From Endozoicomonas sp. 8E (GTDB lineage: Bacteria; Pseudomonadota; Gammaproteobacteria; Pseudomonadales; Endozoicomonadaceae): a stretch of DNA of 64,000 nt. Within the stretch, counting starts at the first letter, position 1, and each line of letters begins with the position of its first letter. This document shows, one piece after another, positions 1,288 through 26,237 of this stretch. Made by a program: the position numbers and the translations under genes. A model generated the notes under the pieces. That model worked only from the letters and a program-made list of their open reading frames with translations, did no database searches and was not told the origin of the DNA. The stretch covers positions 1,432,501 to 1,496,500 of the forward strand of contig NZ_CP120717.1 in the NCBI RefSeq assembly GCF_032883915.1, read 5' to 3'.

Positions 1288-1713
1288 AGGAAGTACTCCC
1301 GAATTTATTCGTTATAGCCATTTGTCCCGAACAAGAGGTTGTTCGGGCGGCCAAGAGCTTCGGCAAACATTCCTTTGGCCGGCAATTGGGTTCACGGCTG
1401 AATGATCGAACAGCTTTGCTCTCACTTCAGTGAGCATCATTTTTACAGGTAACTGGCAAAACGATGGTTAGACTCACCGGTATCAAAAAACAAAAGCCGC
1501 TTTATTAAGTCCCACAAACTCTGTTCAAAGATGTTCCTGTGGGAGGTTATCAACTGTTAATTCCAGTTCAGATTTTTGATTTAGCAAGTCGAAAGCCCAA
1601 AAAAACTTAATATCACAATGATATTTTTTAAATAGAACTTTCGTTTTGTTTTATAGTGCTTACCTGCCCAGTGCAGTAAACTGCTGTTGTTTATCTTTTT
1701 TTGTGCAGGTTTC
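1288..1713. other. Intergenic region between divergent glpT and GIY-YIG genes
   Basis: 426 bases without a gene. It holds a 7-bp inverted repeat with a 3-base spacer at 1609-1625 (AATATCA CAA TGATATT), which could be an operator, and a longer-range inverted repeat TCCCACA (1510-1516) / TGTGGGA (1538-1544). Both genes must take their promoters from this region. No regulator-specific site was recognised. Confidence 0.4.
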
Positions 1714-2016
1714 ATGAACTGGTTCGTTTATATCATTCTGGCAAGCAACAACAGTCTGTATACCGGCATTACTACCAATGTTGAGCGGCGCTGGAAAGAA
1801 CACGCAGGCGAAAAGAAAGGCGGCGCCCGATTTTTTAACGGTAAAAAACCTGCTGCCCTGATGTATGTGGAAGCAGGTCATAACCGTTCAACCGCAAGCA
1901 GACGGGAGGCCGCTATTAAAAAAATGACTCGAACTCAGAAGGAGGCTCTGCTGAAAGAAAAGCAAAACATCGCTTCCAACTATGCTGAAGTCCTTTCGGT
2001 CGAAACCAGGCTTTGA
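1714..2016 (+). CDS. GIY-YIG nuclease-superfamily protein, YhbQ/UPF0213-like
   Basis: Small 100-residue protein of the UPF0213 (YhbQ) branch of GIY-YIG proteins. The signature is spread over WFVYIILASNNSLYTGIT near the N-terminus, followed by the conserved Arg and His of ERRWKEHAG and a basic C-terminal half (REAAIKKMTRTQKEALL) typical of this family. The upstream TTG at 1687 would add nine residues not found in YhbQ proteins, so the ATG at 1714 is preferred. E. coli YhbQ has been linked to DNA processing, but the role here is unknown. It converges on the first ephrin-like gene, leaving only 22 bases between them. Confidence 0.8.
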   Translation: MNWFVYIILASNNSLYTGITTNVERRWKEHAGEKKGGARFFNGKKPAALMYVEAGHNRSTASRREAAIKKMTRTQKEALLKEKQNIASNYAEVLSVETRL

Positions 2017-2038: not shown

Positions 2039-3265
2039 TCAGAATGCGCTTAAACCAATAAAATGTATCAACATCAAAAGCGTCAATGCCGGTAAGTCAT
2101 AAAGTGGGCTTGCTTTACTGATGTATTCATACTTAAAGCTACCCACATTGATAGACAGTTTTGATTTCCATACCCGCCCAAGACTGTACTCGGGTGATGC
2201 CTCAAATTGATAAACGTCGCCATTTCGGTATTCGGGTTTCAGTATCGTCAGACGATCACCGACTTTCTGACATAACCAGCTATCGACAATGGTTCCTTTA
2301 TTGTTCAGCAGACTGATTTTAGTGTTGGGTTCTTTACACAGTGCAACCACCGGGTAATTCCTGTCTTCAAAGGCTTGTACAGTCAGAGTCTGGTTATAGC
2401 CGATTTCCCACATAAAATGCACCGGCGCTGCCAGTGATTCATCATACCCGGTGGGAGTGGTTTCAGTAGTCTTTGTGATCATTGTTTCGGTATCAGGGTC
2501 AATATTGATATAAGCATCAGTAACAATGACAGGAACTCCCTCAGTCGCATTTGTCATAACCGTTTTGGTATCCTTGTGAGTATTGGAGTTGGTATCAGTA
2601 GTAATGGCAGGAACCGATGTTGCTAAAGAGTTGATTAAAGGCGTTTTTACAAGGTCTGTTAAAGGAACGGGTGTAAAAGGGTAAGATGCAGGAAGCCAGT
2701 TTAACTGAGGGTTCGGATTTTCGCAGTCGGGATTTGTTTCATTGATATTATGTTTCTTGCAGACATAAATCTTGATGCGCATATTATGTGTCTCACAATG
2801 TCCGCCTTTTTTGTTTTTGAGTGTACTCGCATAGCCATTTGATGTGGAGAATACATAGTAATATTTCCCCCCTTCAAAGGTTCTGTCGTTACTTCCTGCC
2901 GCATGTTCAAGAAACAGCAGACTAAGAAAGGTTAGACGATTGGGATTGTCGCAACTAAAGAAATCGTGATTAGTTTTGGTAAGAACCTTCGGCATCTCGC
3001 AATTCTCATAGGCGGTCTCGTTGTCCGTTAACCATATATTTTCATTCATCTGTGAGGTTTGTCTGTCGTAGTTGCGTTGCCTTGCCACAGTGGGAAGATT
3101 AGGGCAAATAAAATATAACTGTGAATTTAAGCTTACTGCTATGGTTTTGTTCTCAGCGTGCGAATATAAAACATGTTCCCACAAAACGCTTGTGTAGATA
3201 TCACGAGCATCACAGGCCTGAAACAGATGGAATAACAACAGGAAACCAAATAAGAAAACTTGCAT
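2039..3265 (-). CDS. Secreted ephrin-B-like protein, copy 1
   Basis: 408 residues, predicted exported. Residues 1-20 form a signal peptide ending CDA|RD with no basic residue in its n-region. Residues 22-182 resemble an animal ephrin-B ectodomain: cysteines at 54 (FICPN), 89 (ENCEMP), 105 (FFSCDNP) and 157 (GGHC) match the four ephrin cysteines, including the 52-residue step between the third and fourth, and YYYVFSTSNG...GGHCETHNMRI resembles ephrin-B2 YYIISTSNG...GGVCQTRAMKI. Extra cysteines lie at 169 and 181. A Thr-rich linker (about 190-285) leads to a second domain (about 288-385) with two cysteines (ALCKEP, SWLCQK), then a hydrophobic tail ending LSAF. It is the most downstream of six tandem copies. 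Ephrin-like genes are, from memory, reported in Endozoicomonas. Receptor binding is inference. Confidence 0.78.
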   Translation of the reverse strand: MQVFLFGFLLLFHLFQACDARDIYTSVLWEHVLYSHAENKTIAVSLNSQLYFICPNLPTVARQRNYDRQTSQMNENIWLTDNETAYENCEMPKVLTKTNHDFFSCDNPNRLTFLSLLFLEHAAGSNDRTFEGGKYYYVFSTSNGYASTLKNKKGGHCETHNMRIKIYVCKKHNINETNPDCENPNPQLNWLPASYPFTPVPLTDLVKTPLINSLATSVPAITTDTNSNTHKDTKTVMTNATEGVPVIVTDAYINIDPDTETMITKTTETTPTGYDESLAAPVHFMWEIGYNQTLTVQAFEDRNYPVVALCKEPNTKISLLNNKGTIVDSWLCQKVGDRLTILKPEYRNGDVYQFEASPEYSLGRVWKSKLSINVGSFKYEYISKASPLYDLPALTLLMLIHFIGLSAF

Positions 3266-3285
3266 AATGTTTCTCTAATACTGGG

Positions 3286-3303
3286 TCAGAATAAAAGTAG
3301 TAG
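3286..3303 (-). promoter_or_regulatory. Conserved upstream element of ephrin-like copy 1
   Basis: On the coding strand this 18-mer reads CTACTACTTTTATTCTGA and ends about 20 bases before the ATG. A related block is found at the same place before all six copies. TATTCT could be a -10 box; no -35 box is evident. Confidence 0.4.
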
Positions 3304-3327
3304 CTCAATATTTACATCTTCATGCCG

Positions 3328-4560
3328 TCAGAATGTGCTTGCCGCAATAAAATACATTGAGATCAAAAGCGCCAGTGTTGGTGAGTGGTGGAGAGGGTTT
3401 ACGTTATTGACAATGTGATGCCTGAAACTACCTACATTGACAGACAGTTTTGATTTCCATACCCGTACACGACTAAACTGGGGCCTTGCCTCAAATAGAT
3501 AAACGTCGCCATTTCGGTATTCAGGTTTAAGTATTGTCAGACGCTCACCGATTTTCTGACATAGCCAGCTGTCGACAATGGTTCCATCACCCTTCAGCAG
3601 ACTGATTCTGGTATTGGGCTCTTTGCACAGAGCCACCACCGGATAATGCTCTTCTGCAAAGATTTGTGCGGTTCGGGTCTGGTTATAGCCAATCACCCAG
3701 ATTAACTGGAAGGGCTGTGCAGGTGATTCGTCATACCGGTCAGGAACCTTTTCGGTAGTTTTTATAGCTGCTTTTGTATCATTACCGATGTCAGTAAGAA
3801 TGGTAGGAAGGGTTCCTGTGGCGTTTGTCATTATTGTTTCAGCTTCGTTGTCTGTATACGAATCTGTGTCATTAATAATGTCGGGGGCACCGATCGTTAA
3901 AGGATGGGTTAGAGGGGGCGTTGAAAGAGTGGTTAAAGGCCGTCTTAAAGGATTTTTAAAGGGAGCATAAGTAAAAACACCCGTTGGACTGTACCAGTTT
4001 AACTGAGGGTCCGGCTCATTGCAGTCGGGATTTGTTTCATTGATATTGTTTTTCTTACAGATATAAATCTTCAGGCGCATGTTATGTGTCAGGCAATGTC
4101 CGCCCTTTTTGTTATGAACTGACGACTGGGCTCCAGTTGATGTGGAAAGCAAGTAATACTCTTTCCCTCCATCAAAGGTTCTGTCGTTCACACCGGCAGC
4201 AAAATCAAGAAACAGTAACCCCAGGAAAACCAGCTGGGTAGGACTGTCGCAAATAAAGTGATCAGATACTTTCGAGGGATTTTCCGGAATCTCGCAGTTC
4301 TCATAGGCAGTGACGTTGTCCGTTAGCCACATATTTTCATACATGGTTGTGGTTTGTCTGTCGTGACCGCGTCTCCTTATGACGGTGGGTAAATTGGGAC
4401 AAATGATATACAGCTGTGAGTCTAAATGTACCGATATGCTCTTGTTCTCTGCGTGGGAATATAATACGTCCCACCACCAGGCGCTCTGGTAGGTATCAAG
4501 AGCCTCGCAGGTCTGAAACAGATGGAATAACAACAGGAATCCAAATAAGACAAATTGCAT
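3328..4560 (-). CDS. Secreted ephrin-B-like protein, copy 2
   Basis: 410 residues. Signal peptide 1-20 ends TCEA|LD. The ephrin-like domain contains IICPN, ENCEIP, HFICDSP, FDGGKEYYLLSTSTG and GGHCLTHNMRLKIYICKK. It differs from copy 1 in having WWWDVLYSHAENKS near the N-terminus. The linker contains NDTDSYTDNEAETIMTNATG and several N-x-T/S sequons. The second domain (FQLIWVIGYNQTRTAQIF to WKSKLSVNVGSF) is close to that of copy 4. The tail is hydrophobic, ending IAASTF. The gene lies 62 bases upstream of copy 1 on the same strand, so the two may be cotranscribed, although each has its own conserved upstream block. Confidence 0.78.
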   Translation of the reverse strand: MQFVLFGFLLLFHLFQTCEALDTYQSAWWWDVLYSHAENKSISVHLDSQLYIICPNLPTVIRRRGHDRQTTTMYENMWLTDNVTAYENCEIPENPSKVSDHFICDSPTQLVFLGLLFLDFAAGVNDRTFDGGKEYYLLSTSTGAQSSVHNKKGGHCLTHNMRLKIYICKKNNINETNPDCNEPDPQLNWYSPTGVFTYAPFKNPLRRPLTTLSTPPLTHPLTIGAPDIINDTDSYTDNEAETIMTNATGTLPTILTDIGNDTKAAIKTTEKVPDRYDESPAQPFQLIWVIGYNQTRTAQIFAEEHYPVVALCKEPNTRISLLKGDGTIVDSWLCQKIGERLTILKPEYRNGDVYLFEARPQFSRVRVWKSKLSVNVGSFRHHIVNNVNPLHHSPTLALLISMYFIAASTF

Positions 4561-4580
4561 AAATTTTCTCTAATAGGAAG

Positions 4581-4598
4581 TCAGAATAAAACTAGTAG
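4581..4598 (-). promoter_or_regulatory. Conserved upstream element of ephrin-like copy 2
   Basis: Plus-strand TCAGAATAAAACTAGTAG, one base different from the copy-1 element, at the same distance from the ATG. The purine-rich TTAGAGAAAATTT between it and the start is the likely ribosome-binding region. Confidence 0.4.
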
Positions 4599-4737
4599 AT
4601 AACTCTGCACATGTTCATTAAAAAAAGGCATCCGTAGCTCATATATCGCTTATTACATCGCAGAAGTTTCTGTATGGCCTGTTTTTTCACCATTTCTCTG
4701 ATGTTTTTCAAGAATTTGCGAGGGTGCCTGGTCTTTG

Positions 4738-5934
4738 TCAGAATACGTTTGCAGTAATAAGATACATTGACACCAAAAGCGCAAATGTTGGTAAGTTAAA
4801 GAGCGCGTTTGCTTTACTGAGATATTCATAATTAAAGCTACCCACATTGATAGACAGTTTTGATTTCCATACCCGGCTAAGACTGTACTCGGGTGATGCT
4901 TCAAATCGATAAACATCGCCATTGCGGTATTCGGGTTTCAGTATCGTCAGTCGATCACCGACTTTCTGACATAACCAGCTATCGACAATTCTTCCTTGAT
5001 TGTTCAGAAGGCTTATTTTGGTGTCAGGTTCTTTACACAGTGCAACCACCGGGTAATTCTCTTCTTCAAAGAGAGTTTCAGTTTGGGTCTGGTTAAAGCC
5101 CACTTCCCACATTAACTGAACGGAATCTGCCTGTGTGTCATCATAGTTAGTGGGTACCGTTTCAGTGGCCTTTGTCGTCACCGTATCGGTATAGATGTCA
5201 GTAATAACAGCAGCCACTTTTTCAGTCGTATTAGTCATAACCGTCTCGGTATTGTTTCCAGTATCGGTATGATCAGTAATGGCAGGAGCAGTTGTTGTTA
5301 AAGGGTTTGTTAAATGAGCTTTTACACGGTTTGTTACAGGAGCAGGAGTAAAAGGGTAAGTTCCTGGAAGCCAGTTTAACTGAGGGTTTGTTTTTTTGCA
5401 GAGCGGGCTGGTATCACCCCTTGCTTTACAGACATAAATCTTGATGCGCATGTTGTGTGTCAGACAATGCCCACCTTTTCTGTTATAGAGTGAACTCGCA
5501 CGGCCATTTGAAGTGGAGAATAGATAGTAATATTTCCCACCTCCAAAGGTTTTGTCATTCATTTCGGCAGCATCTGGAAGGAACAGTAAATTAAGGTGAA
5601 CCAGTCGAATGGGGTCGTCGCAAATAAATATATCTTGCCGACTAATGGGACAATCTTCCGGAATCTCACAGTTCTCATAGTAGGTCTCGTTGTCCGTGAG
5701 CCATATATTTTCTTTCATGTCTGAGGTTTGCCTATCGTGGCCGCGTGCCCTTGCTACAGTGGGAAGGTTGGGGCAAAGAAACTTTATCTGCGAGTTTAGC
5801 CTTACTCCTATGGTTTTGTTCTCAGCGTGGGAATATAAATCATATTCCCACAGTACAGTTGTGTACATCTCACGAGCCTCAGATGTCTGCAATAGATGGA
5901 ATAACAACAGGAGCGAAAATAAGAAAACTTGCAT
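4738..5934 (-). CDS. Secreted ephrin-B-like protein, copy 3
   Basis: 398 residues. Here the signal peptide ends LQTSEA|RE, so the cysteine seen at this point in copies 1, 2, 4 and 6 is absent; this argues against a lipobox in the family. The ephrin-like core has KFLCPN, ENCEIPEDC (an extra Cys), IFICDDP, FGGGKYYYLFSTSNG and GGHCLTHNMRIKIYVCKA, then SPLCKK. The Thr-rich linker is about 80 residues with TETVMTNTTEK and TETVPTNYDD. The second domain has VALCKEPDTKISLLNNQG and SWLCQKVGDRLTILKPEYRN. The tail ends ITANVF. The gap to copy 2 is 177 bases and contains no gene. Confidence 0.78.
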   Translation of the reverse strand: MQVFLFSLLLLFHLLQTSEAREMYTTVLWEYDLYSHAENKTIGVRLNSQIKFLCPNLPTVARARGHDRQTSDMKENIWLTDNETYYENCEIPEDCPISRQDIFICDDPIRLVHLNLLFLPDAAEMNDKTFGGGKYYYLFSTSNGRASSLYNRKGGHCLTHNMRIKIYVCKARGDTSPLCKKTNPQLNWLPGTYPFTPAPVTNRVKAHLTNPLTTTAPAITDHTDTGNNTETVMTNTTEKVAAVITDIYTDTVTTKATETVPTNYDDTQADSVQLMWEVGFNQTQTETLFEEENYPVVALCKEPDTKISLLNNQGRIVDSWLCQKVGDRLTILKPEYRNGDVYRFEASPEYSLSRVWKSKLSINVGSFNYEYLSKANALFNLPTFALLVSMYLITANVF

Positions 5935-5954
5935 TATATTTCTCTAATATAAAG

Positions 5955-5972
5955 TTAGAATAAAAATAGTAG
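5955..5972 (-). promoter_or_regulatory. Conserved upstream element of ephrin-like copy 3
   Basis: Plus-strand TTAGAATAAAAATAGTAG, the counterpart of the copy-1 and copy-2 elements, followed on the coding strand by TTAGAGAAATATA and the ATG. Confidence 0.4.
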
Positions 5973-5996
5973 CCCTATATGCACACCTTTATCTGG

Positions 5997-7205
5997 TCAG
6001 AATGCGTTCGCCACAATAAAGTACATTGAGATCAAAAGCGCCAATGTTGGTGAGTGGTAGAGAGGGTTTTCTTTATTGATCATGTGATGCCTGAAGCTAG
6101 CCACATTGACAGACAGTTTCGACTTCCACACCCGAGTATGGCTATATTCGGGTGATGCCTCAAATAGATAAACGTCGCCATTGTAGTATTCGGGTTTAAG
6201 TATCGTCAGACGCTCGCCGACCTTCTGACATAACCAGCTATCAAGAATCGCTCCTTTATTGTTCACCAGGCTGATCCTGATGTTGGGCTCTTTACAGAGT
6301 GCAGCCACAGGGTAACTCTTTTCTTCAAAGAGCTGTGCAGTTCGGGTTTGGTTATAGCCAATTTTCCAAATTAACTGAAAGCGCTGTGACAGTGAATAAT
6401 CATCATAGCCGGCAGTGGTCGTTGTTGTGGCCTTTGCTATCACAGTTTCTGTATCAGTCATAATGACAGGAGCCGTATCAGTGGTTTTTGTGACCACTGT
6501 TTCAGTCTCATCGTCAATATCGGAATCAGTGTCGTTAGTAATGACGGGTAAAGTCGTTGTTACAGGATTAGTTAAAGGGTTTGTTAAAGGATCTTTAAAA
6601 GGAGCATAAACAAAAGCCTCCGTTGGACTGTAAAAGTTTGGCTGAGGATCTGTACTACCTCTGCATTCGGGATTTGTTTCATTGATAAGCTTTTTTTTAC
6701 AGACATAAATCTTGAGGCGCATGTTATGGGTTAGACAATGTCCGCCTTTTCTGTTGTTAATTGATGACTCAGCCCCGGTTGATGTGGACAACAAATAATA
6801 ATGTTTTCCGTCTTTAAAGGTTCTGTCGTTTCGTCCTGCCGAATGTTCAAGAAACAGTAAATTCAGGAAAACCAGCCGCGTGGGATCGTTGCAAATAAAG
6901 AAATCCTTTTCAGTCGTGGGATGATCTTCAGGTATCTCACAGTTCTCATAGTAGGTTTCGTTGTCCGTTAACCATATATTTTCATACATGGTTGAGGTTT
7001 GTCTATCGTGGCCGCGCGGCCTTATCACGGTGGGGGAATTGGGGCAAATAAAATATATCTTTGAGTTTAAGTTTACTGTTATGCTCTTGTTCTCAGCATG
7101 GGAAAATAATTCGTCCCACCACCAGAGGCTCTGGTAGATATCACTAGCATTGCAGGTCTGAAACAGATGTAATAACAACAGAAAACCAAATAAGATAACT
7201 CGCAT
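5997..7205 (-). CDS. Secreted ephrin-B-like protein, copy 4
   Basis: 402 residues. It starts MRVILFGFLLLLHLFQTCNA|SD, the only copy with a basic residue in the signal-peptide n-region. The ephrin-like domain has YFICPN, ENCEIPEDH, FFICNDP, FKDGKHYYLLSTSTG and GGHCLTHNMRLKIYVCKK. The linker repeats short Thr/Val motifs (TETVVTKTTDT, TETVIAKATTTTT). The second domain (FQLIWKIGYNQTRTAQLF...) and the tail (LLISMYFIVANAF) are closest to copy 2. It is 62 bases upstream of copy 3, the same spacing as copies 1 and 2, which suggests the array grew by duplicating a two-gene unit. Confidence 0.78.
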   Translation of the reverse strand: MRVILFGFLLLLHLFQTCNASDIYQSLWWWDELFSHAENKSITVNLNSKIYFICPNSPTVIRPRGHDRQTSTMYENIWLTDNETYYENCEIPEDHPTTEKDFFICNDPTRLVFLNLLFLEHSAGRNDRTFKDGKHYYLLSTSTGAESSINNRKGGHCLTHNMRLKIYVCKKKLINETNPECRGSTDPQPNFYSPTEAFVYAPFKDPLTNPLTNPVTTTLPVITNDTDSDIDDETETVVTKTTDTAPVIMTDTETVIAKATTTTTAGYDDYSLSQRFQLIWKIGYNQTRTAQLFEEKSYPVAALCKEPNIRISLVNNKGAILDSWLCQKVGERLTILKPEYYNGDVYLFEASPEYSHTRVWKSKLSVNVASFRHHMINKENPLYHSPTLALLISMYFIVANAF

Positions 7206-7225
7206 ACTTTTTTCCCAATAACTAG

Positions 7226-7243
7226 TCAGGATAAAAGTAGCAG
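7226..7243 (-). promoter_or_regulatory. Conserved upstream element of ephrin-like copy 4
   Basis: Plus-strand TCAGGATAAAAGTAGCAG. The ribosome-binding stretch that follows on the coding strand is TTGGGAAAAAAGT rather than the TTAGAGAAA of copies 1-3. Confidence 0.4.
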
Positions 7244-7292
7244 ATATATCCGCACAGTTTCAGAAAAATCCATGGGAAGGTTCTTGACCCTT

Positions 7293-8462
7293 TCAGAATC
7301 TGTTTGCAGCGATAAGATACATTGAAATCAGAAGCGCTAATGCCGATGAGTCATAGAGAGTGTTTGCGTTATTGATTGTTTGATGCCTGATACTACGCAC
7401 ATTAACAGACAGTTTCGATTTCCATAGCGGTGTAAGGCTGTAATCGGGTGATGCTTCAAATAAATAAAACTCAGCATTGCGGTTTTCGCGTTTAAGTATC
7501 GTCAGACGCTGATCTGTTTTCTTACATAACCAGCTATCGAGAATTCTGTTTTTATCATTTAGCAGGCTGATCTTTATGTTGGGTTCTTTACACAATGCAA
7601 CCACCGGGTAATGCTCTTCTTTAGAGATGGTTGTTGTTTGGGTCTGGTTGTGGCTGATCTCCCATATTAACTCAACGGGCTCTTCCAGTGAATCATCCTC
7701 CCCGGTGGGAACTGCTTTGTTAGCCTCTGTCGTAACTGCTTCAGTAGCCTTTGTAATGTGCGCTTCAGTAGTCACTTTCATAGGAGTTTTGGTATTGGCA
7801 TCGTTATTGGCATTAGTAATAATGGCAGGAACAGCGGGAATTACAGGATTTATAAAACTGTATATGGAATGAGAGTTCTTAGAAGGATCACTTGGAGGAA
7901 TAATGTTTAACTTAGGGTCTATGTTTTTGCACAGCGGATGAGGGTCGCTACTCCTTTTACAGACATAAATCTTGACGCGCATGTTGTGTGTCAGACAATG
8001 TCCGCCTTTTCTGTTGTTAATTGAGCTCAGGGTGCCATCTGATGTGGAGAATACATAGTAATATTTCCCCCCTTCAAAAGTCATATCGTCTTTACCGGCA
8101 GAGTATTCAAGAAACAGTAGATTTACAAAAGACAGTTGATTGGCATCGTTGCAAACAAAATGGAAAACCCTGCTTGAGCTATTTTCCGGTATTTCACAGT
8201 TTTCGTAGAAGGTTTCGTTTCTTACTAACCATAGATTTTCATTCATATCTGAGACTTGTTTATCGAAGCTGCGTTGCTTTACCACAGTGGGAAGATTGGG
8301 ACAAATAAAGCCTATTGCTCCGTTTATCCGTACACCTACGGTTTTGTTCTCCACGTGTGAATATAAATCTTCCACCCATAGAGCGCTTGTGTAGGTATCA
8401 CGGGCATCAGATGTCTGAAACAGACATAACAACAAGATGAACCCGAATAAGACCAGTTGCAT
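7293..8462 (-). CDS. Secreted ephrin-B-like protein, copy 5 (most divergent)
   Basis: 389 residues, the shortest copy. The signal peptide ends LFQTSDA|RD. The ephrin-like domain keeps all cysteines (GFICPN, ENCEIPEN, FVCNDA, GGHCLTHNMRVKIYVCKR, HPLCKN) and YYYVFSTSDG, but the Asp-Arg-Thr-Phe segment common to most copies is DDMTF. The short linker is rich in ITKATEAVTTEANKAV. In the second domain the usual KVGERLTILKPEYRNGD is KKTDQRLTILKRENRNAE, so several otherwise invariant residues have changed. The tail ends IAANRF. This is the copy under least apparent constraint, though the reading frame is intact. Confidence 0.75.
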   Translation of the reverse strand: MQLVLFGFILLLCLFQTSDARDTYTSALWVEDLYSHVENKTVGVRINGAIGFICPNLPTVVKQRSFDKQVSDMNENLWLVRNETFYENCEIPENSSSRVFHFVCNDANQLSFVNLLFLEYSAGKDDMTFEGGKYYYVFSTSDGTLSSINNRKGGHCLTHNMRVKIYVCKRSSDPHPLCKNIDPKLNIIPPSDPSKNSHSIYSFINPVIPAVPAIITNANNDANTKTPMKVTTEAHITKATEAVTTEANKAVPTGEDDSLEEPVELIWEISHNQTQTTTISKEEHYPVVALCKEPNIKISLLNDKNRILDSWLCKKTDQRLTILKRENRNAEFYLFEASPDYSLTPLWKSKLSVNVRSIRHQTINNANTLYDSSALALLISMYLIAANRF

Positions 8463-8482
8463 AATTGCTCTCTAGTACAAAT

Positions 8483-8501
8483 TCAGATTAAGAAATAGCA
8501 G
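8483..8501 (-). promoter_or_regulatory. Conserved upstream element of ephrin-like copy 5
   Basis: Plus-strand TCAGATTAAGAAATAGCAG, a diverged version of the element with one inserted base. Together with the 169-base gap to copy 6 it suggests separate transcription. Confidence 0.3.
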
Positions 8502-8631
8502 ACAAGTCTGCAGATTTTCAGTAAATAAGACAATAAAAAGACATTCATAGAGTTTACTCATCACGCGTTGAAACAAAGAAGTTTTGTCTGGCTCTTGCTA
8601 ATCCGCTTTAATCATCTGGTTCTTAACCCTG

Positions 8632-10692
8632 TCAGAGTGCGCTTGCACTAATAAGATACACAGAGATCAAAAGCGGCAATACCTGTGGGTTATAAAAGGT
8701 GTCTGCGTTATTAGTATGATAATCTCTGGAGCTAACCACATTGACAGACAGCTTCGATTTCGGTGCCCGTATACGGCGATATTCGGGAGATGCCTCAAAT
8801 AGATAAACGTCGCCATACCGGTATTTGGGTTTAAGTATCGTCAGGCGCTCACCGACTTTCTGACACAGCCAGCTATTGATAATGGTTCCTTTGTCGTTCA
8901 GCAGATTGATCCTGGTGTTGGGCACTTTGCACTGTGCAATCACCGGATAATGCTCTTCTTCAAAGATATTTGCAGTTCGGGTCTGGTTGTCGCCCATCAT
9001 CCAAACCAACCGAACGGGCTGTGCCAGTGAATGTTCATATCTGGTTGGAGTCGTTTCGGTATCAGTTTGAGTATTGTTGACAGTCCTAGTGACAGAGGCC
9101 GTTCCCGAAGCGGTTGTCATAACTATTGCAGTACTCTTGTCAGTGCCAGTGACGGGAGCTGTTCCATAAGCGGTTGTCATAACTATTGCGATACTCCTGT
9201 CAGTGGTAGTGACGGGAGCTGTTCCGGAAGCGGTTGTCATAACTATTGCTGTCTCATTGTCGGCCATAGTGACGGGAGCTGTTCCGGATGCGGTTGTCAT
9301 AACTATTGCTGTCTCATTGTCGGCCATAGTGACGTGAGCTGTTCCGGATGCGGTTGTCATAACTATTGCGGTACTTTTGTCAGTGGTATTGACGGGAGCT
9401 GTTCCGGAAGCGGTTGTCATAACTATTGCTGTCACGTTGTCGGCCATAGTGACGGGAGCTGTTCCGGATGCGGTTGTCATAACTATTGCGGTACTTTTGT
9501 CAGTGGTATTGACGGGAGCTGTTCCGGAAGCGGTTGTCATAACTATTGCTGTCACGTTGTCGGCCATAGTGACGGGAGCCGTTGCAGAAGTGGTTGTCAT
9601 AACGATTGCTGTACTGTTGTCGGTCATAGTGACGGGAGCCGTTGCGGAAGTGGTTGTCATAGCGATTGCTGTATTGTTGTCGGCCATAGTGACGGGAGCC
9701 GATGCGGAAGCGGTTGTCATAACGATTGCTGTATTGTTGTCGGCCATAGTGACGGGAGCCGTTGCGAAAGCGGTTGTCACAACGATTGCTGTCTCGTTGT
9801 CGGCCATAGTGACGTGAGTCGTTCCGGAAGTGGTTGTCATAACGATTGTTGTATCGTTGTCGGTCATAGTGACAGGAGCCGTTCCGGAAGTGGTTGCCAG
9901 AACGATTGCTGTCTCGTTGTTGGCCATAGTGACGGGAGCCGTTCCAGTGGCGGTTGTCACAACTATTGCGGTGTCGTTGTTAATCATAGTGACAGGGACC
10001 GTTGCATTAACGGTTGTGTTAATTATTGCGGTACCGTTGACAGCGGCATTTGTAGGAACCGTCGTCGTTAAAGGATTTGTTAAAAGTGTCTTTATAGGTG
10101 CAGAAAGAAAAGCACCCGTTGCATTATACCAGTTTAACTGAGGGTCCGGATAACTGCAGCTGGGGTCCGTTTCATTATAATGTTTACAGATATAAACCTT
10201 GAGGCGCATGTTATGTGTTCGACAATGTCCGTCTTTTTTATTCCCAAGTGAGCTCTTATAACCGGTTGACGTGGACATAATGTAGTAATGTTGCCCGCCT
10301 TTAAATGTTCTGTCGTCTTTTCCGGCAGCATGCTCAAGAAACAGTATACTCAGATAGCCCAGGCGATGTGGATCGCGACAAAAATGGACATCTGTTTGAT
10401 CTGAGGGGTTATCCGGTATCTCACAATTCTCATAGTAGGTCTCGTTATCCGTCAACCATATATTTTCATACAGGGTGGGGGCTTGTCTGACGTCAGTACG
10501 CATCTTTACCACGGTGGCAGCATTGGGACAAACAAAATACATTTGCGAGTTTAACTTTACAGACATGCTCTTATTCTCGGCGTGGGAATATAACTCGTCA
10601 ATCCACCAGGTGCTCTGGTAGACCTGGCGATTAGCATCGCAGGTCTGGTGCAGATGGAATAACAACAGGAATCCGATTAAGACAAATTGCAT
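8632..10692 (-). CDS. Secreted ephrin-B-like protein, copy 6, with expanded repeat linker
   Basis: 686 residues, about 280 longer than its paralogues. Signal peptide 1-20 (HQTCDA|NR). The ephrin-like domain has YFVCPN, ENCEIP, HFCRDP, FKGGQHYYIMSTSTG and DGHCRTHNMRLKVYICKH (DGHC instead of GGHC). The linker contains about fifteen 20-residue units of the form PVTMADNxTAIVMTTASGTA; most carry an N-x-T sequon, giving a long mucin-like Thr/Ala stalk. The C-terminal domain starts near VRLVWMMGDNQTRTANIF and the tail ends LISASAL, the only copy without a terminal Phe. It is the first gene of the array in the direction of transcription. Copy number of the repeats may vary between strains. Confidence 0.8.
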   Translation of the reverse strand: MQFVLIGFLLLFHLHQTCDANRQVYQSTWWIDELYSHAENKSMSVKLNSQMYFVCPNAATVVKMRTDVRQAPTLYENIWLTDNETYYENCEIPDNPSDQTDVHFCRDPHRLGYLSILFLEHAAGKDDRTFKGGQHYYIMSTSTGYKSSLGNKKDGHCRTHNMRLKVYICKHYNETDPSCSYPDPQLNWYNATGAFLSAPIKTLLTNPLTTTVPTNAAVNGTAIINTTVNATVPVTMINNDTAIVVTTATGTAPVTMANNETAIVLATTSGTAPVTMTDNDTTIVMTTTSGTTHVTMADNETAIVVTTAFATAPVTMADNNTAIVMTTASASAPVTMADNNTAIAMTTTSATAPVTMTDNSTAIVMTTTSATAPVTMADNVTAIVMTTASGTAPVNTTDKSTAIVMTTASGTAPVTMADNVTAIVMTTASGTAPVNTTDKSTAIVMTTASGTAHVTMADNETAIVMTTASGTAPVTMADNETAIVMTTASGTAPVTTTDRSIAIVMTTAYGTAPVTGTDKSTAIVMTTASGTASVTRTVNNTQTDTETTPTRYEHSLAQPVRLVWMMGDNQTRTANIFEEEHYPVIAQCKVPNTRINLLNDKGTIINSWLCQKVGERLTILKPKYRYGDVYLFEASPEYRRIRAPKSKLSVNVVSSRDYHTNNADTFYNPQVLPLLISVYLISASAL
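9080..10035. repeat. Tandem 60-bp repeat array inside ephrin-like copy 6
   Basis: About sixteen imperfect copies of a 60-base unit in exact 60-base register, each with a core close to GCGGTTGTCATAACTATTGC on the plus strand. Two variants alternate in the middle (cggccatagtgacgg and cagtggtattgacgg types), showing duplication of a 120-base double unit near 9361-9600. The unit length is a multiple of three, so gain or loss of copies keeps the gene in frame. Units at both ends are more degenerate, as in arrays that grow from the centre. Confidence 0.95.
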
Positions 10693-10712
10693 AATTATTC
10701 TCTGACAATATG

Positions 10713-10730
10713 TCAGTGTTAAATTAGCAG
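10713..10730 (-). promoter_or_regulatory. Conserved upstream element of ephrin-like copy 6
   Basis: Plus-strand TCAGTGTTAAATTAGCAG, recognisably related to the elements of the other five copies but the most diverged. It would serve as the leading promoter of the array. Confidence 0.3.
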
Positions 10731-10952
10731 ACAGACCTGTGCATCTTCCGAAAGTCCAGAGATTCTTAACTCTGCCTGCAAATATCCGGGCTTAACGGGC
10801 AGTAAATAGAAACCCCTGTGTGACTTTACGTCCACTTTTCATGGGGGAGCACTACCTCTGAAGCCTGCTGATATCCTAACTTTACCCGATAAAAATAGCC
10901 GTTTTCTGATGCTGAAAACTTTCCACGAATTAACAAAATCTTACAAAAATAA

Positions 10953-11072: not shown

Positions 11073-12785
11073 ATGGAAGTAGCTTTTTGGGATGGCAAAC
11101 GCGCACCCGGTATTTCTGATCAAATTGACCTCGGAGCCTTCTCTAATCTTGGGGAAGTGATTGCAGATGCTGTCGATAGACATGGAGACAAGCCCGCCTT
11201 CACTGGGCTGGGGTTGACACTCAGCTTTAATGAGGTGGATCGCCTGAGCGATCAGTTTGCAGCCTACCTTCAGCAGCACACCGGATTGCAACCCGGTGAT
11301 CGCATTGCTCTGCAAATGCCTAACATTTTGCAGTATCCAGTGGTGGCCTTTGGTGCCATCAAAGCGGGTTTGGTCATTGTTAATACGAATCCTCTCTATA
11401 CTGCCAGAGAGATTAAACATCAGTTCAATGACGCAGGTGTGAAAGCGCTGGTTTGCGTCAATATCGTTGGACATCTGGTCGAAGAAGTCTTATCGGGGAC
11501 CGGTGTTGAGCACCTGATTGTGACTGATCTGGCGGATCTGTTGCCCTGGCCAAAACGCTCCTTAATCAACTTTGCCGTCAAGCACGTCAAGAAAATGGTG
11601 CCGTCTTACAGCCTTCCAACAGCCGTACCTTTCAGGAAGGCCCTTGCACTGGGTAGCAAGGGAACCTATAAGCCACCTAAGCCAGCACAAAGAGAAGATC
11701 TGGCTGCTCTGCAGTACACCGGGGGGACTACCGGCGTCGCCAAGGGTGCCATGTTGACTCATGCCAATCTGGTCGGCAACGTTCTCCAGACAGTTGAATT
11801 GAGAAGACAGGTAAATGCTGATGGCAGTCCGGTTTGCAATCCTGAAGGTGATACTGTGGTAGCGCCACTGCCTCTTTATCACATCTATGCCTTCTCGGTT
11901 CACTTGTTGTCATACTTCTCTCTGGGAGGGCACAGTATCCTGATTGCTAACCCCAGGGATATTGATACCTTCATCAAAACCATCAAGCCCTGGCGTATCA
12001 ATGCATTTATTGGCCTCAACACTCTTTTTGTCGGCTTGATGAACCACCCCGAGTTCAAGAATATTGACTTCTCTGACCTGAGAGTGACCAATTCGGGGGG
12101 GACAGCACTTCAGCAGGCGACAGCAGATCGCTGGCTCGAACTGACTGGCTGCCGAATTGGTGAAGGCTATGGTTTGTCCGAAACCTCTCCTATTTTGACC
12201 GCCAACCCTGCGGGTGACTTTGTTCAGGATGGCACAGTGGGTATTGCCTTACCGGGTACCGCTCTGAAAGTCATTGATGATGAAGGCAACGAGTTACCAT
12301 TCGGTGAACGCGGCGAACTCTGTGCAAAAGGCCCTCAGGTCATGGCAGGTTATTGGCAGCGCCCCGAAGCGACTGCCGAAGTGCTGGACAACGAAGGCTG
12401 GTTCCGTACGGGTGATGTAGCCATCATTGGTGAAGACGGCTATATACGTATCGTAGACCGTCTGAAAGATATGGTGCTGGTATCCGGCTTTAATGTCTAT
12501 CCCAATGAGATTGAGGATGTTGTGGCCAGGCATGAAAAAGTGCAAAACTGTGCGGTGATCGGAGTACCTGATGAGAAAACAGGAGAGGCAGTAAAACTGT
12601 TTGTTATTCCTCAGGATGACAGTATTACCGAGCAGGAGTTGAAGGACTATTGTCGTAAAAATATGACAGCTTACAAAGTGCCCAGACAGGTGGAGTTCAG
12701 AGTAGAGCTTCCGATGACCCCCGTAGGCAAGGTTTTAAGGAAAGATCTCCGTGCACAGGAACTGAAGAAGCTGGAAACAGCTTGA
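11073..12785 (+). CDS. fadD: Long-chain fatty-acid-CoA ligase FadD
   Basis: Activates imported long-chain fatty acids to acyl-CoA with ATP, for beta-oxidation and lipid synthesis; acts at the inner face of the membrane. 570 residues, close to E. coli FadD (561). The AMP-binding P-loop is YTGGTTGVAKGA near residue 214, followed by PLYHIYAF, the NSGGTALQ and GYGLSETSP adenylate motifs, GWFRTGDVA, and the FACS signature DRLKDMVLVSGFNVYPNEIE. The C-terminal catalytic Lys lies in PVGKVLRKDLR. The ATG at 11073 follows an ACGAGGAGCTCTCC ribosome-binding stretch. It is monocistronic: the next gene is 269 bases away. Confidence 0.93.
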   Translation: MEVAFWDGKRAPGISDQIDLGAFSNLGEVIADAVDRHGDKPAFTGLGLTLSFNEVDRLSDQFAAYLQQHTGLQPGDRIALQMPNILQYPVVAFGAIKAGLVIVNTNPLYTAREIKHQFNDAGVKALVCVNIVGHLVEEVLSGTGVEHLIVTDLADLLPWPKRSLINFAVKHVKKMVPSYSLPTAVPFRKALALGSKGTYKPPKPAQREDLAALQYTGGTTGVAKGAMLTHANLVGNVLQTVELRRQVNADGSPVCNPEGDTVVAPLPLYHIYAFSVHLLSYFSLGGHSILIANPRDIDTFIKTIKPWRINAFIGLNTLFVGLMNHPEFKNIDFSDLRVTNSGGTALQQATADRWLELTGCRIGEGYGLSETSPILTANPAGDFVQDGTVGIALPGTALKVIDDEGNELPFGERGELCAKGPQVMAGYWQRPEATAEVLDNEGWFRTGDVAIIGEDGYIRIVDRLKDMVLVSGFNVYPNEIEDVVARHEKVQNCAVIGVPDEKTGEAVKLFVIPQDDSITEQELKDYCRKNMTAYKVPRQVEFRVELPMTPVGKVLRKDLRAQELKKLETA

Positions 12786-20952: not shown

Positions 20953-22080
20953 CTATTTAATATCGACGACCTTCAAATCCTGCTGTTTTTTCAGATCTAA
21001 ATCGCGATAACGAATCCCGGGTTTATCAAAGTCTACCGATGCGAAATCAATCTCTCGAATACGGCTGTTGAACATGGTTTTGTAATAGTATTTCAGGTCT
21101 TTGGTATCCATAGCCGTCGTCCACTGAGTGGAGCCCAGTGTGTCGTCTTTGGGGAGTTCATCTCTGGCAAATACTGCACCAGAAGGAATATCAAAGTTGT
21201 TCAGGATGCGCAGTGATTCCATTGCGGCGGCATAGCCATTTTCGACGGGGCGTGCTGTGTTTCGCAGTGCCGCTGCGCGAACAAATCGAGATACGGGTGA
21301 GTAATCGCCAGGCAGGCCAATCATGCCCGAACCAGCGCCGTGTGGCGCCAACTCCAGATCGCCTATTTTAATGTCTGGTTTGGCTTTGGCGGTGAGGCCG
21401 ACGTAATTTTTCAGGTTTTGCAGATGCCAGGGAAACTCAGGATTGTTAGTTAACACGCCGACGGGGTTGTCATAAATATTCAGCTTGCCGCCATGGGTGT
21501 ACTCCACCACAATTGATGCTCCGGAGCGATCTGTCATCATGAAATGAATCGGCGGTACGATATTGCCTAAGCCTTTTTCTTTTACGGGGGCAACATCTAT
21601 TTTTGGAAGATTTTGCTTTATGTCTTTTATTGTCGACTGGGTAGAGAGTACCCAGTTGCTGATGTCTTGAGGACCAATTGTGTTTGCTGCTTTGGCCGGG
21701 TCATAGGGTGGAAACTCGGCAGTGCCTGGCAAGTAAAGCACTGAAACGGCTAAGCCTTTTTCGTTCATTCCATCAATAAGCGCTGGTTTATTGAGGCCAT
21801 TGATGCCAACGACACCGTATTTGGCTTTCCACTTTAAGCCCGGTTTGCCATCAGGCGTGAGACCCGTGAAGGCGGTGTCTCGTGGTATCACCATAATTTT
21901 TGATTCCAGATCAAAGGATCCCCACTCTTCAGTGCGAGCCTGGATGACCGCATCGTCCTCTGAAACCAGTGTAATGCCTGTACAGGCAAGAACGATTGGG
22001 ATCTGAACAACGGCGGCAAGAGCCATGGCGCTGAGAAGAAAGGCTGTAATGACCGATACTTTTAATGAAGGGGTGTTCAT
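20953..22080 (-). CDS. Choloylglycine-hydrolase-family amidase (Ntn hydrolase, exported)
   Basis: 375 residues. Signal peptide 1-32 ends VLA|C, so cleavage exposes Cys33 as the N-terminal nucleophile (ACTGITLVSEDD), as in the linear amide C-N hydrolase family (bile salt hydrolase / penicillin V acylase). Supporting residues are ARTEEW (Arg after the nucleophile), MNEKGLAVSVLYLPG, VEYTHGGKLNIYDN, VLTNNPEFPWH (Asn) and SPVSRFVRAA (Arg). Gram-negative members cleave penicillin V and some degrade N-acyl-homoserine lactones; bile salts are a less likely substrate in a marine symbiont. The substrate cannot be read from sequence. Confidence 0.83.
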   Translation of the reverse strand: MNTPSLKVSVITAFLLSAMALAAVVQIPIVLACTGITLVSEDDAVIQARTEEWGSFDLESKIMVIPRDTAFTGLTPDGKPGLKWKAKYGVVGINGLNKPALIDGMNEKGLAVSVLYLPGTAEFPPYDPAKAANTIGPQDISNWVLSTQSTIKDIKQNLPKIDVAPVKEKGLGNIVPPIHFMMTDRSGASIVVEYTHGGKLNIYDNPVGVLTNNPEFPWHLQNLKNYVGLTAKAKPDIKIGDLELAPHGAGSGMIGLPGDYSPVSRFVRAAALRNTARPVENGYAAAMESLRILNNFDIPSGAVFARDELPKDDTLGSTQWTTAMDTKDLKYYYKTMFNSRIREIDFASVDFDKPGIRYRDLDLKKQQDLKVVDIK

Positions 22081-22360: not shown

Positions 22361-23005
22361 ATGAATAACGTAAATACACCCGCCGCTGTTGGGGTTTCAA
22401 CCCCAGACTTGACAAAACCTGTTCAGCCACAGAGCAAACCAACAGGTGCTGGTTTCGGATGGGTTATTACTAAAGCTGACCAGGGTGAACTTTTAAGTCA
22501 TCAAGGTCTACAACAGGCAGGCTCCCATCTTCAAGGTGACAGAACCAATGACCGCCGTGTGGTGACCATCAATGCCGATGGCATAGCGAATATCTACAAT
22601 CGGAAGGCCGATGGATCATTTGCAAAAGAGGCTAGCATTGCCGCTAAAGGTCTTGTCAACTCAGCCACCTTAAGCGACGATAAGCTCCATGTGGTCACCG
22701 TCAGCGACGATCACAGGGTGGGAGTTCATGCCCTGGGGGCCGACGGAGCATGGGTAACCAAAACTGCCATTTCTCATGACGGGCCGATCACATTAGCAAC
22801 CTTCAGCGCTGATGAAATGCATGTGGTGACCGCCAGTGACGATCACACGGCAAAAGTCTGTGACAAGATGGTCGACGGATCATGGGTAGAAAAAACCACC
22901 GTTCAACATGATGGGCCGGTCAATTTCGTAGACTTCATCGACGATGGCTTCCGCCTGGTGACCAGCAGTGAGAATGGAACGAGGCAAGTCACTGAACTGA
23001 AATGA
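22361..23005 (+). CDS. WD40-like repeat protein, possible effector
   Basis: 214 residues, no signal peptide. After a disordered N-terminus (about 1-50) come three to four WD40-like blades of about 42 residues, each of the form HDGPITLATFSADEMHVVTA followed by SDDHTAKVCDK and DGSWVEKT; the GH and WD hallmarks are degenerate. Four blades are too few for a closed 6-8-bladed propeller, so it may dimerise or be a remnant of a longer gene. The start has AAAGGAAC upstream. It precedes two large unknown proteins on the same strand. Short WD40-like proteins are common in host-associated bacteria; secretion is not shown. Confidence 0.65.
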   Translation: MNNVNTPAAVGVSTPDLTKPVQPQSKPTGAGFGWVITKADQGELLSHQGLQQAGSHLQGDRTNDRRVVTINADGIANIYNRKADGSFAKEASIAAKGLVNSATLSDDKLHVVTVSDDHRVGVHALGADGAWVTKTAISHDGPITLATFSADEMHVVTASDDHTAKVCDKMVDGSWVEKTTVQHDGPVNFVDFIDDGFRLVTSSENGTRQVTELK

Positions 23006-23192
23006 AATGATTGACTGCCTGCGCTCACCCATGGTGTCAGGCAGTATTTCTTCACAACTCACCTTGATTAACACAACCCGCCGAGTGGGCAGTGATGTAC
23101 CCTGGTACTTTGACGCCACTGACAAACTCCCAGAACCTGCCTCAATTATCTGCTCTTAACTGTTTGTGCTCCAGAGACTCTGTTGGTGGGTC

Positions 23193-26100: not shown

Positions 26101-26237
26101 TAAACCCGGTTGTCTGGTTGGCGACTTTTCTGGTTAATCGCAGGCTCAGGCAGCAGCAGTATCAGCTGGAGCTGGACCATGTTGAGCAGCAGAAGCGTTT
26201 AAATCTTGCTCAAAAGTCTCGGGTTAGAACTGTCTGA
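23193..26237 (+). CDS. Large coiled-coil / beta-module protein of unknown function, paralogue A
   Basis: 1014 residues from the ATG at 23193 (GGTGGG upstream). The frame opens at a GTG at 23166, and an ATG at 23278 is a third possibility. Layout: disordered start; amphipathic patch WATLLTGFSKLAMRFIRAG; coiled coil rich in Lys/Glu/Leu; beta-rich module 1 (VYHLNLGNLSTTL...ILDIADIRADL...GISIKLKPP); charged helical region; beta-rich module 2 (MNIPVSGTSSVELSQLKVNV...VELTIPEM...AAIKIRPPFGLLVKELL...YLEIDLGAVSCL); Pro/Thr/Glu-rich linker; C-terminal module 3 with LKKRTSLNPVVWLATFLVNRRLRQ. The modules share the pattern 'strand, E-L-x-I-P-x-I, x-I-K-I-x-P-P'. No family was recognised. The next gene, 34 bases on, is a full-length paralogue. 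Confidence 0.7.
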   Translation: MANSSKSWRDGLFQAQWQCGDIKKNSLSMDNDMATGGSNLPVNGPGGRQQTVQNQSIPSTQPSKAKMGPRDVSVDETTGSLLQGEAGLHPQYVPIHKRDVVIEKVEGGFWATLLTGFSKLAMRFIRAGIGKTGNKADDKLKSNEQFANENKKKLEGLQHEMKSIQTELKGLRKKLPRLETKKQDQFSKLQKRLFELRAQLSRLERNFHGIKETKPLLKVWDQKIRKETQDFLKLIEKQMGPGLKLIHGLQQVFGKSKKGLPAGKVYHLNLGNLSTTLSSGAELKVQNIGVFIEQCYMSPTKELILDIADIRADLSSMGASGEVEPMTLSGGISIKLKPPTSEYLYKVLTENILKAPIYINAMSKQLKPADVAEVSIKSLQLEKKDGQTLALQDAPFAHSLLDLMIPFMSGSPELPLVALDLEKQWKHKGLEVVCESLDKEEKDRKDDLYQLLEDIKSLPEGEAKDRCQQLSLQATKDLKAIAELREAKIRELTHSKQLRSVQQQRSKNIDSSFDMNRGMIDLVYGLAAVANGSPTGIQKHIAISGMNIPVSGTSSVELSQLKVNVSDFSFSPSGVVELTIPEMASHITLQNEVTGEKKSVPVIVRGAAIKIRPPFGLLVKELLQLKFPVDSKMLDKMVTPIYNETTKKKHSGGTKISDYLEIDLGAVSCLTREGEVAFSGEEASPYEQHRQAFVEKTGDLLSANVDAKAMESALASAGLTKESQQKVWKLCEEGVFADSAVFAPEKLEHLVLPFSGQEPPIPQTSPLPEQEVTHSSEVMTPVPETEPPENTTPNAEISKPEPVLTTSIGTAAENPESPRKVTVDASVAEPERLESILVNPRKNRAVTPSSSSLPEEVKPSEVANAATTRPLSRASVKPATEKSPEGLKFKDLHECIGVINPRFRTEKGKRVADFEMRIAPRGLMKKLSWWMGFFLGKKEVAVEVTLPIDRKSSELQLQSPFVQLKKRTSLNPVVWLATFLVNRRLRQQQYQLELDHVEQQKRLNLAQKSRVRTV

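What the first reader, a model, noticed from the sequence alone, without database searches (positions are those of the whole stretch)
2039..10692. Tandem array of six ephrin-B-like secreted proteins in a bacterium
Each of six adjacent genes has a signal peptide and a domain with the four ephrin cysteines in order, including the 52-residue step between the third and fourth as I recall it for ephrin-B2, and a STSNG...GGHC...M(R)(I/L)K motif like the ephrin-B G-H region and final strands. Ephrins are animal cell-surface ligands for Eph kinases. Ephrin-like genes have, as I recall, been reported in Endozoicomonas montiporae and proposed as a route into coral cells. A six-copy array with diversified stalks suggests an expanded, possibly host-range-determining surface family.
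Basis: partly seen in the sequence, partly recalled or inferred. Interest (0 to 1): 0.9.

Follow-up and report, generated by a model that had tools for sequence, protein, structure and literature searches.

The report
Tandem bacterial ephrin genes, receptor loop changed
A relative of known coral-associated bacteria carries six neighbouring genes built on an animal cell-signalling domain (ephrin); such genes are already known in these bacteria, but in the copies examined the part that plugs into the animal receptor looks rewritten while the rest of the domain is kept.

Summary
Six adjacent minus-strand genes (389-686 aa) each match Pfam Ephrin at 52-64 bits (cut-off 25), and all 30 PDB hits at E<=0.001 for an AlphaFold model of copy 1 are ephrin entries. 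The genome has a seventh copy elsewhere. Ephrin genes in clade-B Endozoicomonas, and their expansion in strain ISHI1, are published, so the kind is known.

Not seen in the passages I read: (1) the 22 copies found in 5 of 37 family genomes share one design: signal peptide, ephrin head, Thr-rich stalk of variable length, a two-cysteine C-terminal domain without a significant Pfam or PDB match, and a hydrophobic end; a profile of that domain hit 21 places, all in these proteins. (2) The array fills a slot that lacks it in relative G026, and probably grew partly by block duplication. (3) At the G-H loop tip, which plugs into Eph receptors in vertebrates, the residue aligned with ephrin-B2 Trp is polar or Gly in 22 of 22 copies, while the scaffold is kept. 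'Ephrin homologue' is supported; 'Eph ligand by the vertebrate mechanism' is not. Most likely a stalked host-contact family; surface location and receptor are inferred.

The parts
2039..3265 (-). ephrin-domain gene 1 (408 aa); Pfam Ephrin stretch 2762-3187; C-terminal domain 2123-2443; hydrophobic end about 2042-2098
3328..4560 (-). ephrin-domain gene 2 (410 aa); Ephrin stretch 4060-4455; C-terminal domain 3412-3732
4738..5934 (-). ephrin-domain gene 3 (398 aa); Ephrin stretch 5431-5832; C-terminal domain 4822-5142
5997..7205 (-). ephrin-domain gene 4 (402 aa); Ephrin stretch 6702-7100; C-terminal domain 6081-6404
7293..8462 (-). ephrin-domain gene 5 (389 aa); Ephrin stretch 7962-8351; C-terminal domain 7377-7697
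8632..10692 (-). ephrin-domain gene 6 (686 aa, long stalk); Ephrin stretch 10189-10584; C-terminal domain 8716-9036
9087..10003 (-). 60-bp (20-residue) tandem repeat, 15.3 copies, coding the Thr-rich stalk of gene 6
3285..3304 (-). 20-nt element (TCTGCTACTTTTATTCTGAC, 2 mismatches) upstream of gene 1
4580..4599 (-). same element upstream of gene 2 (2 mismatches)
5954..5973 (-). same element upstream of gene 3 (4 mismatches); place worked out from -39 relative to the start codon
7225..7244 (-). same element upstream of gene 4 (1 mismatch)
10712..10731 (-). same element upstream of gene 6 (4 mismatches); place worked out from -39
1687..2016 (+). left border of the slot: GIY-YIG endonuclease-family gene (the aligned part starts within this ORF)
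11073..12785 (+). right border of the slot: long-chain acyl-CoA synthetase (FadD-like) gene, named by eye

Best explanation
The six genes are a tandem, still diversifying branch of an Endozoicomonas family whose head is a true ephrin domain, most likely taken from a cnidarian host. Shown here: the domain identity and fold; the shared design (signal peptide, ephrin head, Thr-rich stalk, two-cysteine C-terminal domain, hydrophobic end); the array history; the changed G-H loop tip. Inferred: the protein is exported by Sec, held in a membrane by its hydrophobic end, carried on the stalk to where it can touch host cells, and its head binds a host surface protein. I think the partner is most likely still an Eph or Eph-related receptor, contacted by a loop whose tip has become polar, with the several copies covering different partners or contexts.
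For: Ephrin profile matches 6 of 6; fold; B class closest. Same design in 22 copies from 5 genomes; C-terminal domain profile hits 21 places in 4 of 37 genomes, all within ephrin ORFs. Purifying selection overall (pooled dN/dS 0.40 over 7 pairs of copies) with the loop stretches 91-110 and 120-134 at 0.54 and 0.57 and an excess of amino-acid change in these loops (Fisher p 0.008). Head proteins of two orthologous pairs changed faster (dN 0.125 and 0.167) than five neighbouring genes (dN 0.018-0.070) between the same two genomes. Published: ephrin gene differentially expressed on exposure to coral extract in a related strain (PMC9296628, passages); ephrin-like receptor genes expanded in Acropora (PMC9743535, passages).
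Against: At the place of the ephrin-B2 Trp the 22 copies have N 11, D 7, E 2, T 1, G 1, and the Glu of GLEF is kept in 0 of 22. No surface or secretion evidence: no rhombosortase over its cut-off, no basic residue after the hydrophobic end in 19 of 22, so no known Gram-negative sorting signal is recognised. Arcas et al. found no membrane anchor in the E. montiporae proteins, and Ding et al. predicted one in only one of two (passages). No region reaches pooled dN/dS of 1, and the F strand (0.65) is as high as the loops.
Confidence: 0.45

Rival explanations
1. Adhesin or decoy for a non-Eph host partner: the ephrin scaffold is kept for stability and spread of variants, while the Eph plug is gone and the polar loop binds something else (another protein or a glycan).
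For: Polar or Gly loop-tip residue in 22 of 22 copies with F/Y kept at the loop base in 21 of 22; faster change in loops; Thr-rich stalks of 60-389 aa.
Against: No alternative partner is known; the loop may simply resemble cnidarian ephrins, which I could not obtain; the alignment of the gapped loop is uncertain in some copies.
Confidence: 0.27
2. Plain molecular mimicry as proposed by Ding et al. 2016: the proteins bind coral Eph receptors in the animal manner and trigger endocytosis.
For: Ephrin domain and fold; 39 and 34% identity of the E. montiporae proteins to Nematostella ephrins (PMC4781883, passages).
Against: The vertebrate contact features at the loop tip are not kept in the 22 copies. 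The proposal has no binding data in the passages read.
Confidence: 0.15
3. Envelope protein without a host partner: a captured domain reused in the periplasm or inner membrane.
For: Hydrophobic C-terminal end without a recognised sorting signal.
Against: Rapid change relative to neighbours, copy-number growth, and restriction in the genomes searched to one genus of animal-associated bacteria.
Confidence: 0.1
4. A bacterial cupredoxin that only resembles ephrin.
For: Ephrin and cupredoxin folds are related (stated in PMC4781883 and PMC6993872, passages).
Against: Ephrin is the only Pfam family above its cut-off in the six proteins; all 30 PDB hits at E<=0.001 are ephrin entries.
Confidence: 0.01

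Closest known systems
Endozoicomonas montiporae EfnB2_1 and EfnB2_2 (PMC4781883)
   Same: Ephrin ectodomain with N-terminal secretion signal in a coral-associated Endozoicomonas; genome G023 (5,430,256 bp, very likely this strain, by recalled size and two copies) has the same five-part design.
   Different: Two single copies at two places against a six-gene array plus one here. The passages read ('loop', 'tandem' and 'C-terminal' occur 0 times) describe no C-terminal domain, loop change or array.
Endozoicomonas sp. ISHI1 ephrin genes (PMC9743535)
   Same: Gene expansion reported there; contigs identified. Four genes sit in the same slot between GIY-YIG and fadD.
   Different: Four genes against six in this slot; nine in all against seven.
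Metazoan ephrin-B2
   Same: Domain, fold, four cysteines, 52-residue step.
   Different: Loop tip, Thr-rich repeat stalk, extra C-terminal domain, and no cytoplasmic tail.

Membership tests
Ephrin domain family (Pfam PF00812) | Profile match over the curated cut-off | tested here: met
   6 of 6 window proteins, 51.9-63.9 bits against 25; 16 of 16 members of alignment A2 match at E<=1
Ephrin domain family (Pfam PF00812) | Ephrin Greek-key fold | tested here: met
   Model of copy 1: pLDDT 70-87 in most 10-residue blocks of 71-180, lower in parts of 21-70; top hit 1iko, TM 0.81 by target length, E 1.7e-10
Ephrin domain family (Pfam PF00812) | Four conserved cysteines | tested here: met
   22 of 22 at all four positions
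Functional ephrin (Eph ligand) | Hydrophobic G-H loop tip as in vertebrate ephrin-B | tested here: not met
   Trp place: 0 of 22 hydrophobic; Leu place: V, M or L in 4 of 22; Pro kept in 1 of 22; base Phe is F or Y in 21 of 22. Compared only with fragments of ephrin-B1 and B2
Functional ephrin (Eph ligand) | Membrane anchor (GPI or transmembrane) | tested here: inconclusive
   Hydrophobic C-terminal end in 22 of 22, no K/R after it in 19 of 22; no anchor predictor was run
Functional ephrin (Eph ligand) | Binds an Eph receptor | not testable with these tools
   No cnidarian Eph sequence, complex prediction or binding data at hand
Rhombosortase / GlyGly-CTERM surface proteins | Rhombosortase in the genome and a GlyGly-type C-terminal signal | tested here: not met
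   Best hit 60.9 bits against a cut-off of 84, and the model rang in 14 of 14 control genomes below cut-off; no basic cluster at the end of 19 of 22 proteins
Bacterial N-glycoprotein (PglB/STT3 substrate) | STT3-family enzyme in the genome | tested here: not met
   0 matches at E<=0.01; positive in 4 control genomes

The most novel reading that the evidence does not exclude
A bacterial radiation of ephrins that has given up the hydrophobic Eph plug: one captured animal domain has become a diversifying set of stalked heads, each with a polar loop for a different host surface partner, mounted on a C-terminal domain so far seen only in these bacterial proteins.
Probability: 0.3. Interest if true: 0.75.

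Novelty: new member of a known kind. Interest (0 to 1): 0.5.

Why it matters
The idea that Endozoicomonas enters coral cells by posing as an ephrin has stood since 2016 without binding data in the passages I read. The changed loop tip gives that idea a sharp test: the copies should either not bind coral Eph receptors in the vertebrate manner, or coral Ephs must accept a polar loop. The array, its slot and the fast-changing heads also make copy number and stalk length a tractable trait to compare between strains from different hosts.

Tried and rejected
A second, decayed ephrin domain as the origin of the C-terminal domain: profile-profile comparison gave probability below 1%. Fold of that domain: the model is poor (mean pLDDT 51.6) and the PDB search gave 0 hits at E<=0.001; its profile against PDB sequences gave only a weak immunoglobulin light-chain match, E 0.046.

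Mobile carriage: no relative in phages or plasmids by tblastn with copy 1 or in viral contigs with a one-motif scan; no viral fold match at E<=0.001. A one-motif scan of genome contigs gave 3 loci, all ISHI1; it did not return the E. montiporae type of copy, so it says little about absence. An Ephrin search over a class sample (369 genomes, 1 over the cut-off, the window's own; two others weak at 19.1 and 15.8 bits) and a phylum sample (398 genomes, 1 match, the own) found none elsewhere; these are samples.

Ephrin-receptor domain in the own genome: 0 matches, but the controls were silent too, so this shows nothing. N-glycosylation: sequons exceed shuffles (46 against 34.5 in heads, 82 against 46 in stalks, 27 against 20 in C-terminal domains), but the genome has no STT3 match; left as unexplained. 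Aromatic-x-x-aromatic test of the loop: 1 of 22 has it, but my pattern does not find it in ephrin-B2 either, so the test is uninformative. Promoter scan: 18 sites against 18.2 expected by chance. The 20-nt upstream element also has 6 matches elsewhere in the genome at up to 3 mismatches; of those I opened two loci, and both lie antisense within long ORFs.
Full report
What is there. The window holds six adjacent minus-strand genes at 2039-10692. Each codes for a protein with a hydrophobic N-terminus read as a signal peptide and a Pfam Ephrin domain at 51.9-63.9 bits, cut-off 25. A search of the whole genome (7,377,917 bases, one contig) finds a seventh copy about 1.06 Mb away and one sub-threshold match of 12.4 bits with stops inside. 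In the same search, 2 of 14 control genomes gave weak matches at E<=10 and none passed the cut-off.

Fold. An AlphaFold model of copy 1, made from 13 sequences (5 of the 6 window copies and 8 of the 9 ISHI1 copies; the two long-stalk copies were left out), has mean pLDDT 47.1. The ephrin head is mostly 60-87, with weak stretches at 32-39 and 56-71; the stalk and C-terminal part are below 50. Foldseek against the PDB gives 30 hits at E<=0.001, all entries containing an ephrin; the best is ephrin-B2 (1iko, E 1.7e-10, TM 0.81 by target length), and the next hit is at E 0.44. By sequence profile, B-class ephrins are closest.

Family. In 37 genomes of the family, 5 have Ephrin matches, all in one genus (5 of its 10 genomes): 7, 9, 3, 2 and 1 copies, 22 in all. 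The 2-copy genome is very likely E. montiporae CL-33 (recalled size). All 22 share signal peptide, ephrin head, stalk, two-cysteine C-terminal region and hydrophobic end. A profile of the C-terminal domain hits 21 places in 4 of the 37 genomes, all inside ephrin ORFs; the single G022 copy is not hit, although its two cysteines align. In 16 members scanned against Pfam, only Ephrin is found repeatedly.

Stalk. Stalks are 60-389 residues and Thr/Ser-rich in most copies (15-43% S+T). Tandem repeats found in the window array and in 7 family genes examined have periods of 9 to 63 bp, all multiples of three, so changes in copy number keep the frame. The repeat sequence differs between lineages.

History. 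Trees of the head, the C-terminal domain and both together group window copy 5 with an ISHI1 copy and a G026 copy (93/95 in the joint tree), and long copy 6 with the long copies of ISHI1 and G026 (98/96). In the head-only tree copy 6 pairs with G026 and in the others with ISHI1, so the inner order is unsure. An array of at least two genes therefore predates these species. Genes 1 and 2 match genes 3 and 4 at 79% over 1,684 nt, which covers gene 1, the spacer and the 3' part of gene 2; both pairs have a 62-nt spacer. This points to duplication of a two-gene block. Copies 1 and 3 are sisters (94/87); copies 2 and 4 are not resolved as a pair.

Slot. ISHI1 has four ephrin genes in the same place, between the GIY-YIG gene and the FadD-like gene. 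In G026 these two genes are neighbours, with about 110 bp between the aligned borders, and no array; its two-gene array lies elsewhere, beside a reductase-type operon named by eye. In the more distant G020 they are also neighbours. In G023 about 1.5 kb of other sequence lies between them, and in G019 the FadD gene was not found on the stretch taken. No target duplication or mobile element was seen by eye at the borders. Ide et al. already state that an ephrin gene is inserted in the genome of their strains (PMC9743535, passages), so the insertion as such is not new. The array has 41-48% G+C against 48-53% in ten other genes of the window.

Selection. Pooled over seven pairs of close copies, dN/dS is 0.40 for the head, 0.31 for the C-terminal domain, 0.54 for residues 91-110, 0.57 for the G-H loop 120-134, 0.65 for strand F and 0.27 for the last part of the head. 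Loops against the rest of the head: Fisher p 0.008; head against C-terminal domain: p 0.02. Pooled values stay below 1; three single pairs exceed 1 in the F/G-H stretch (2.03, 1.11, 1.06), on few sites. Between this genome and ISHI1, five neighbouring genes have dN 0.018-0.070, the heads of two orthologous ephrins 0.125 and 0.167.

Loop. In vertebrate complexes the ephrin G-H loop is inserted in a hydrophobic channel of the Eph receptor (PMC3274464, passages). Aligned with fragments of ephrin-B1 and B2, the 22 copies keep the base of the loop (F or Y in 21 of 22) but not its tip. At the Trp of ephrin-B2 they have N 11, D 7, E 2, T 1, G 1. At the preceding Leu, V, M or L is found in 4. The Pro is kept in 1 and the Glu after the tip in 0. 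A first aromatic residue as in the ephrin Phe is kept in 9 of 22. The loop has gaps in some copies, so single places can shift by a residue. Cnidarian ephrins were not available, so I cannot say whether the change is bacterial or inherited.

Anchor and control. A hydrophobic stretch ends all 22 proteins; in 19 no K or R follows it. It looks like a GPI signal or a tail anchor, by recall of such signals; no predictor was run. In 5 of 6 window copies the first five residues have no basic residue. A 20-nt element lies 38-40 nt upstream of 9 of the 22 genes with at most five mismatches, among them 5 of the 6 here; in the window three copies match at up to 3 mismatches against 0.00 expected. It may be part of a promoter for each gene.

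What is known. The six papers that hold both 'Endozoicomonas' and 'ephrin' were read by passages only. They report ephrin genes in E. montiporae with the entry hypothesis, transfer from a cnidarian, expansion in ISHI1 and SESOKO1, restriction to clade B (proposed Neoendozoicomonas), and differential expression on coral extract. Searches and these passages showed no account of the C-terminal domain, the loop tip or a six-gene array. Supplementary files were not open to me, and a previous report on ISHI1 cited there was not seen.

Verdict. The family is known; this is a large new member of it. The changed loop, the family-specific C-terminal domain and the fast-changing heads are the parts worth following. 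Reading: stalked host-contact proteins, partner open, Eph-type receptor somewhat more likely than not among host partners.

Noticed in passing
L032 and L033 (G000:C1 about 4.01-4.02 Mb; a third pattern match, L034, at 4.03 Mb not opened): Long related ORFs (at least 977-978 aa, open at one end) about 8.4 kb apart; their text reminds me of Legionella SidE-type phosphodiesterase domains (recalled, not tested; Pfam gave only a sub-threshold SAM match for L032).
   Followed up: partly
L038:9438-10718 +: Beside the two-gene ephrin array of G026 lies a 426-aa ORF with a hydrophobic N-terminal stretch and a C2H2 zinc-finger match (27.4 bits, cut-off 25.2), with basic runs near its end.
   Followed up: partly
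L040:8393-8716 + and L041:8254-8622 +: A small, very acidic protein with a signal-peptide-like start sits next to the seventh ephrin copy and next to its G026 counterpart; no Pfam match for the L040 one.
   Followed up: partly
window 22361-23005 +: 214-aa protein with WD40 matches (36.2 bits, cut-off 27), a class of eukaryote-like protein.
   Followed up: partly
window 23166-26237 + and 26272-29058 +: Two adjacent large ORFs (1023 and 928 aa) without any Pfam match at E<=0.001.
   Followed up: partly
window 20953-22080 -: Choloylglycine hydrolase family protein (240.8 bits).
   Followed up: partly
all 22 ephrin proteins: N-glycosylation-type sequons exceed shuffled expectation, most in the stalks, and one at N39 is in 20 of 22 copies with Ser and Thr both used, though the genome has no STT3 match.
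   Followed up: partly
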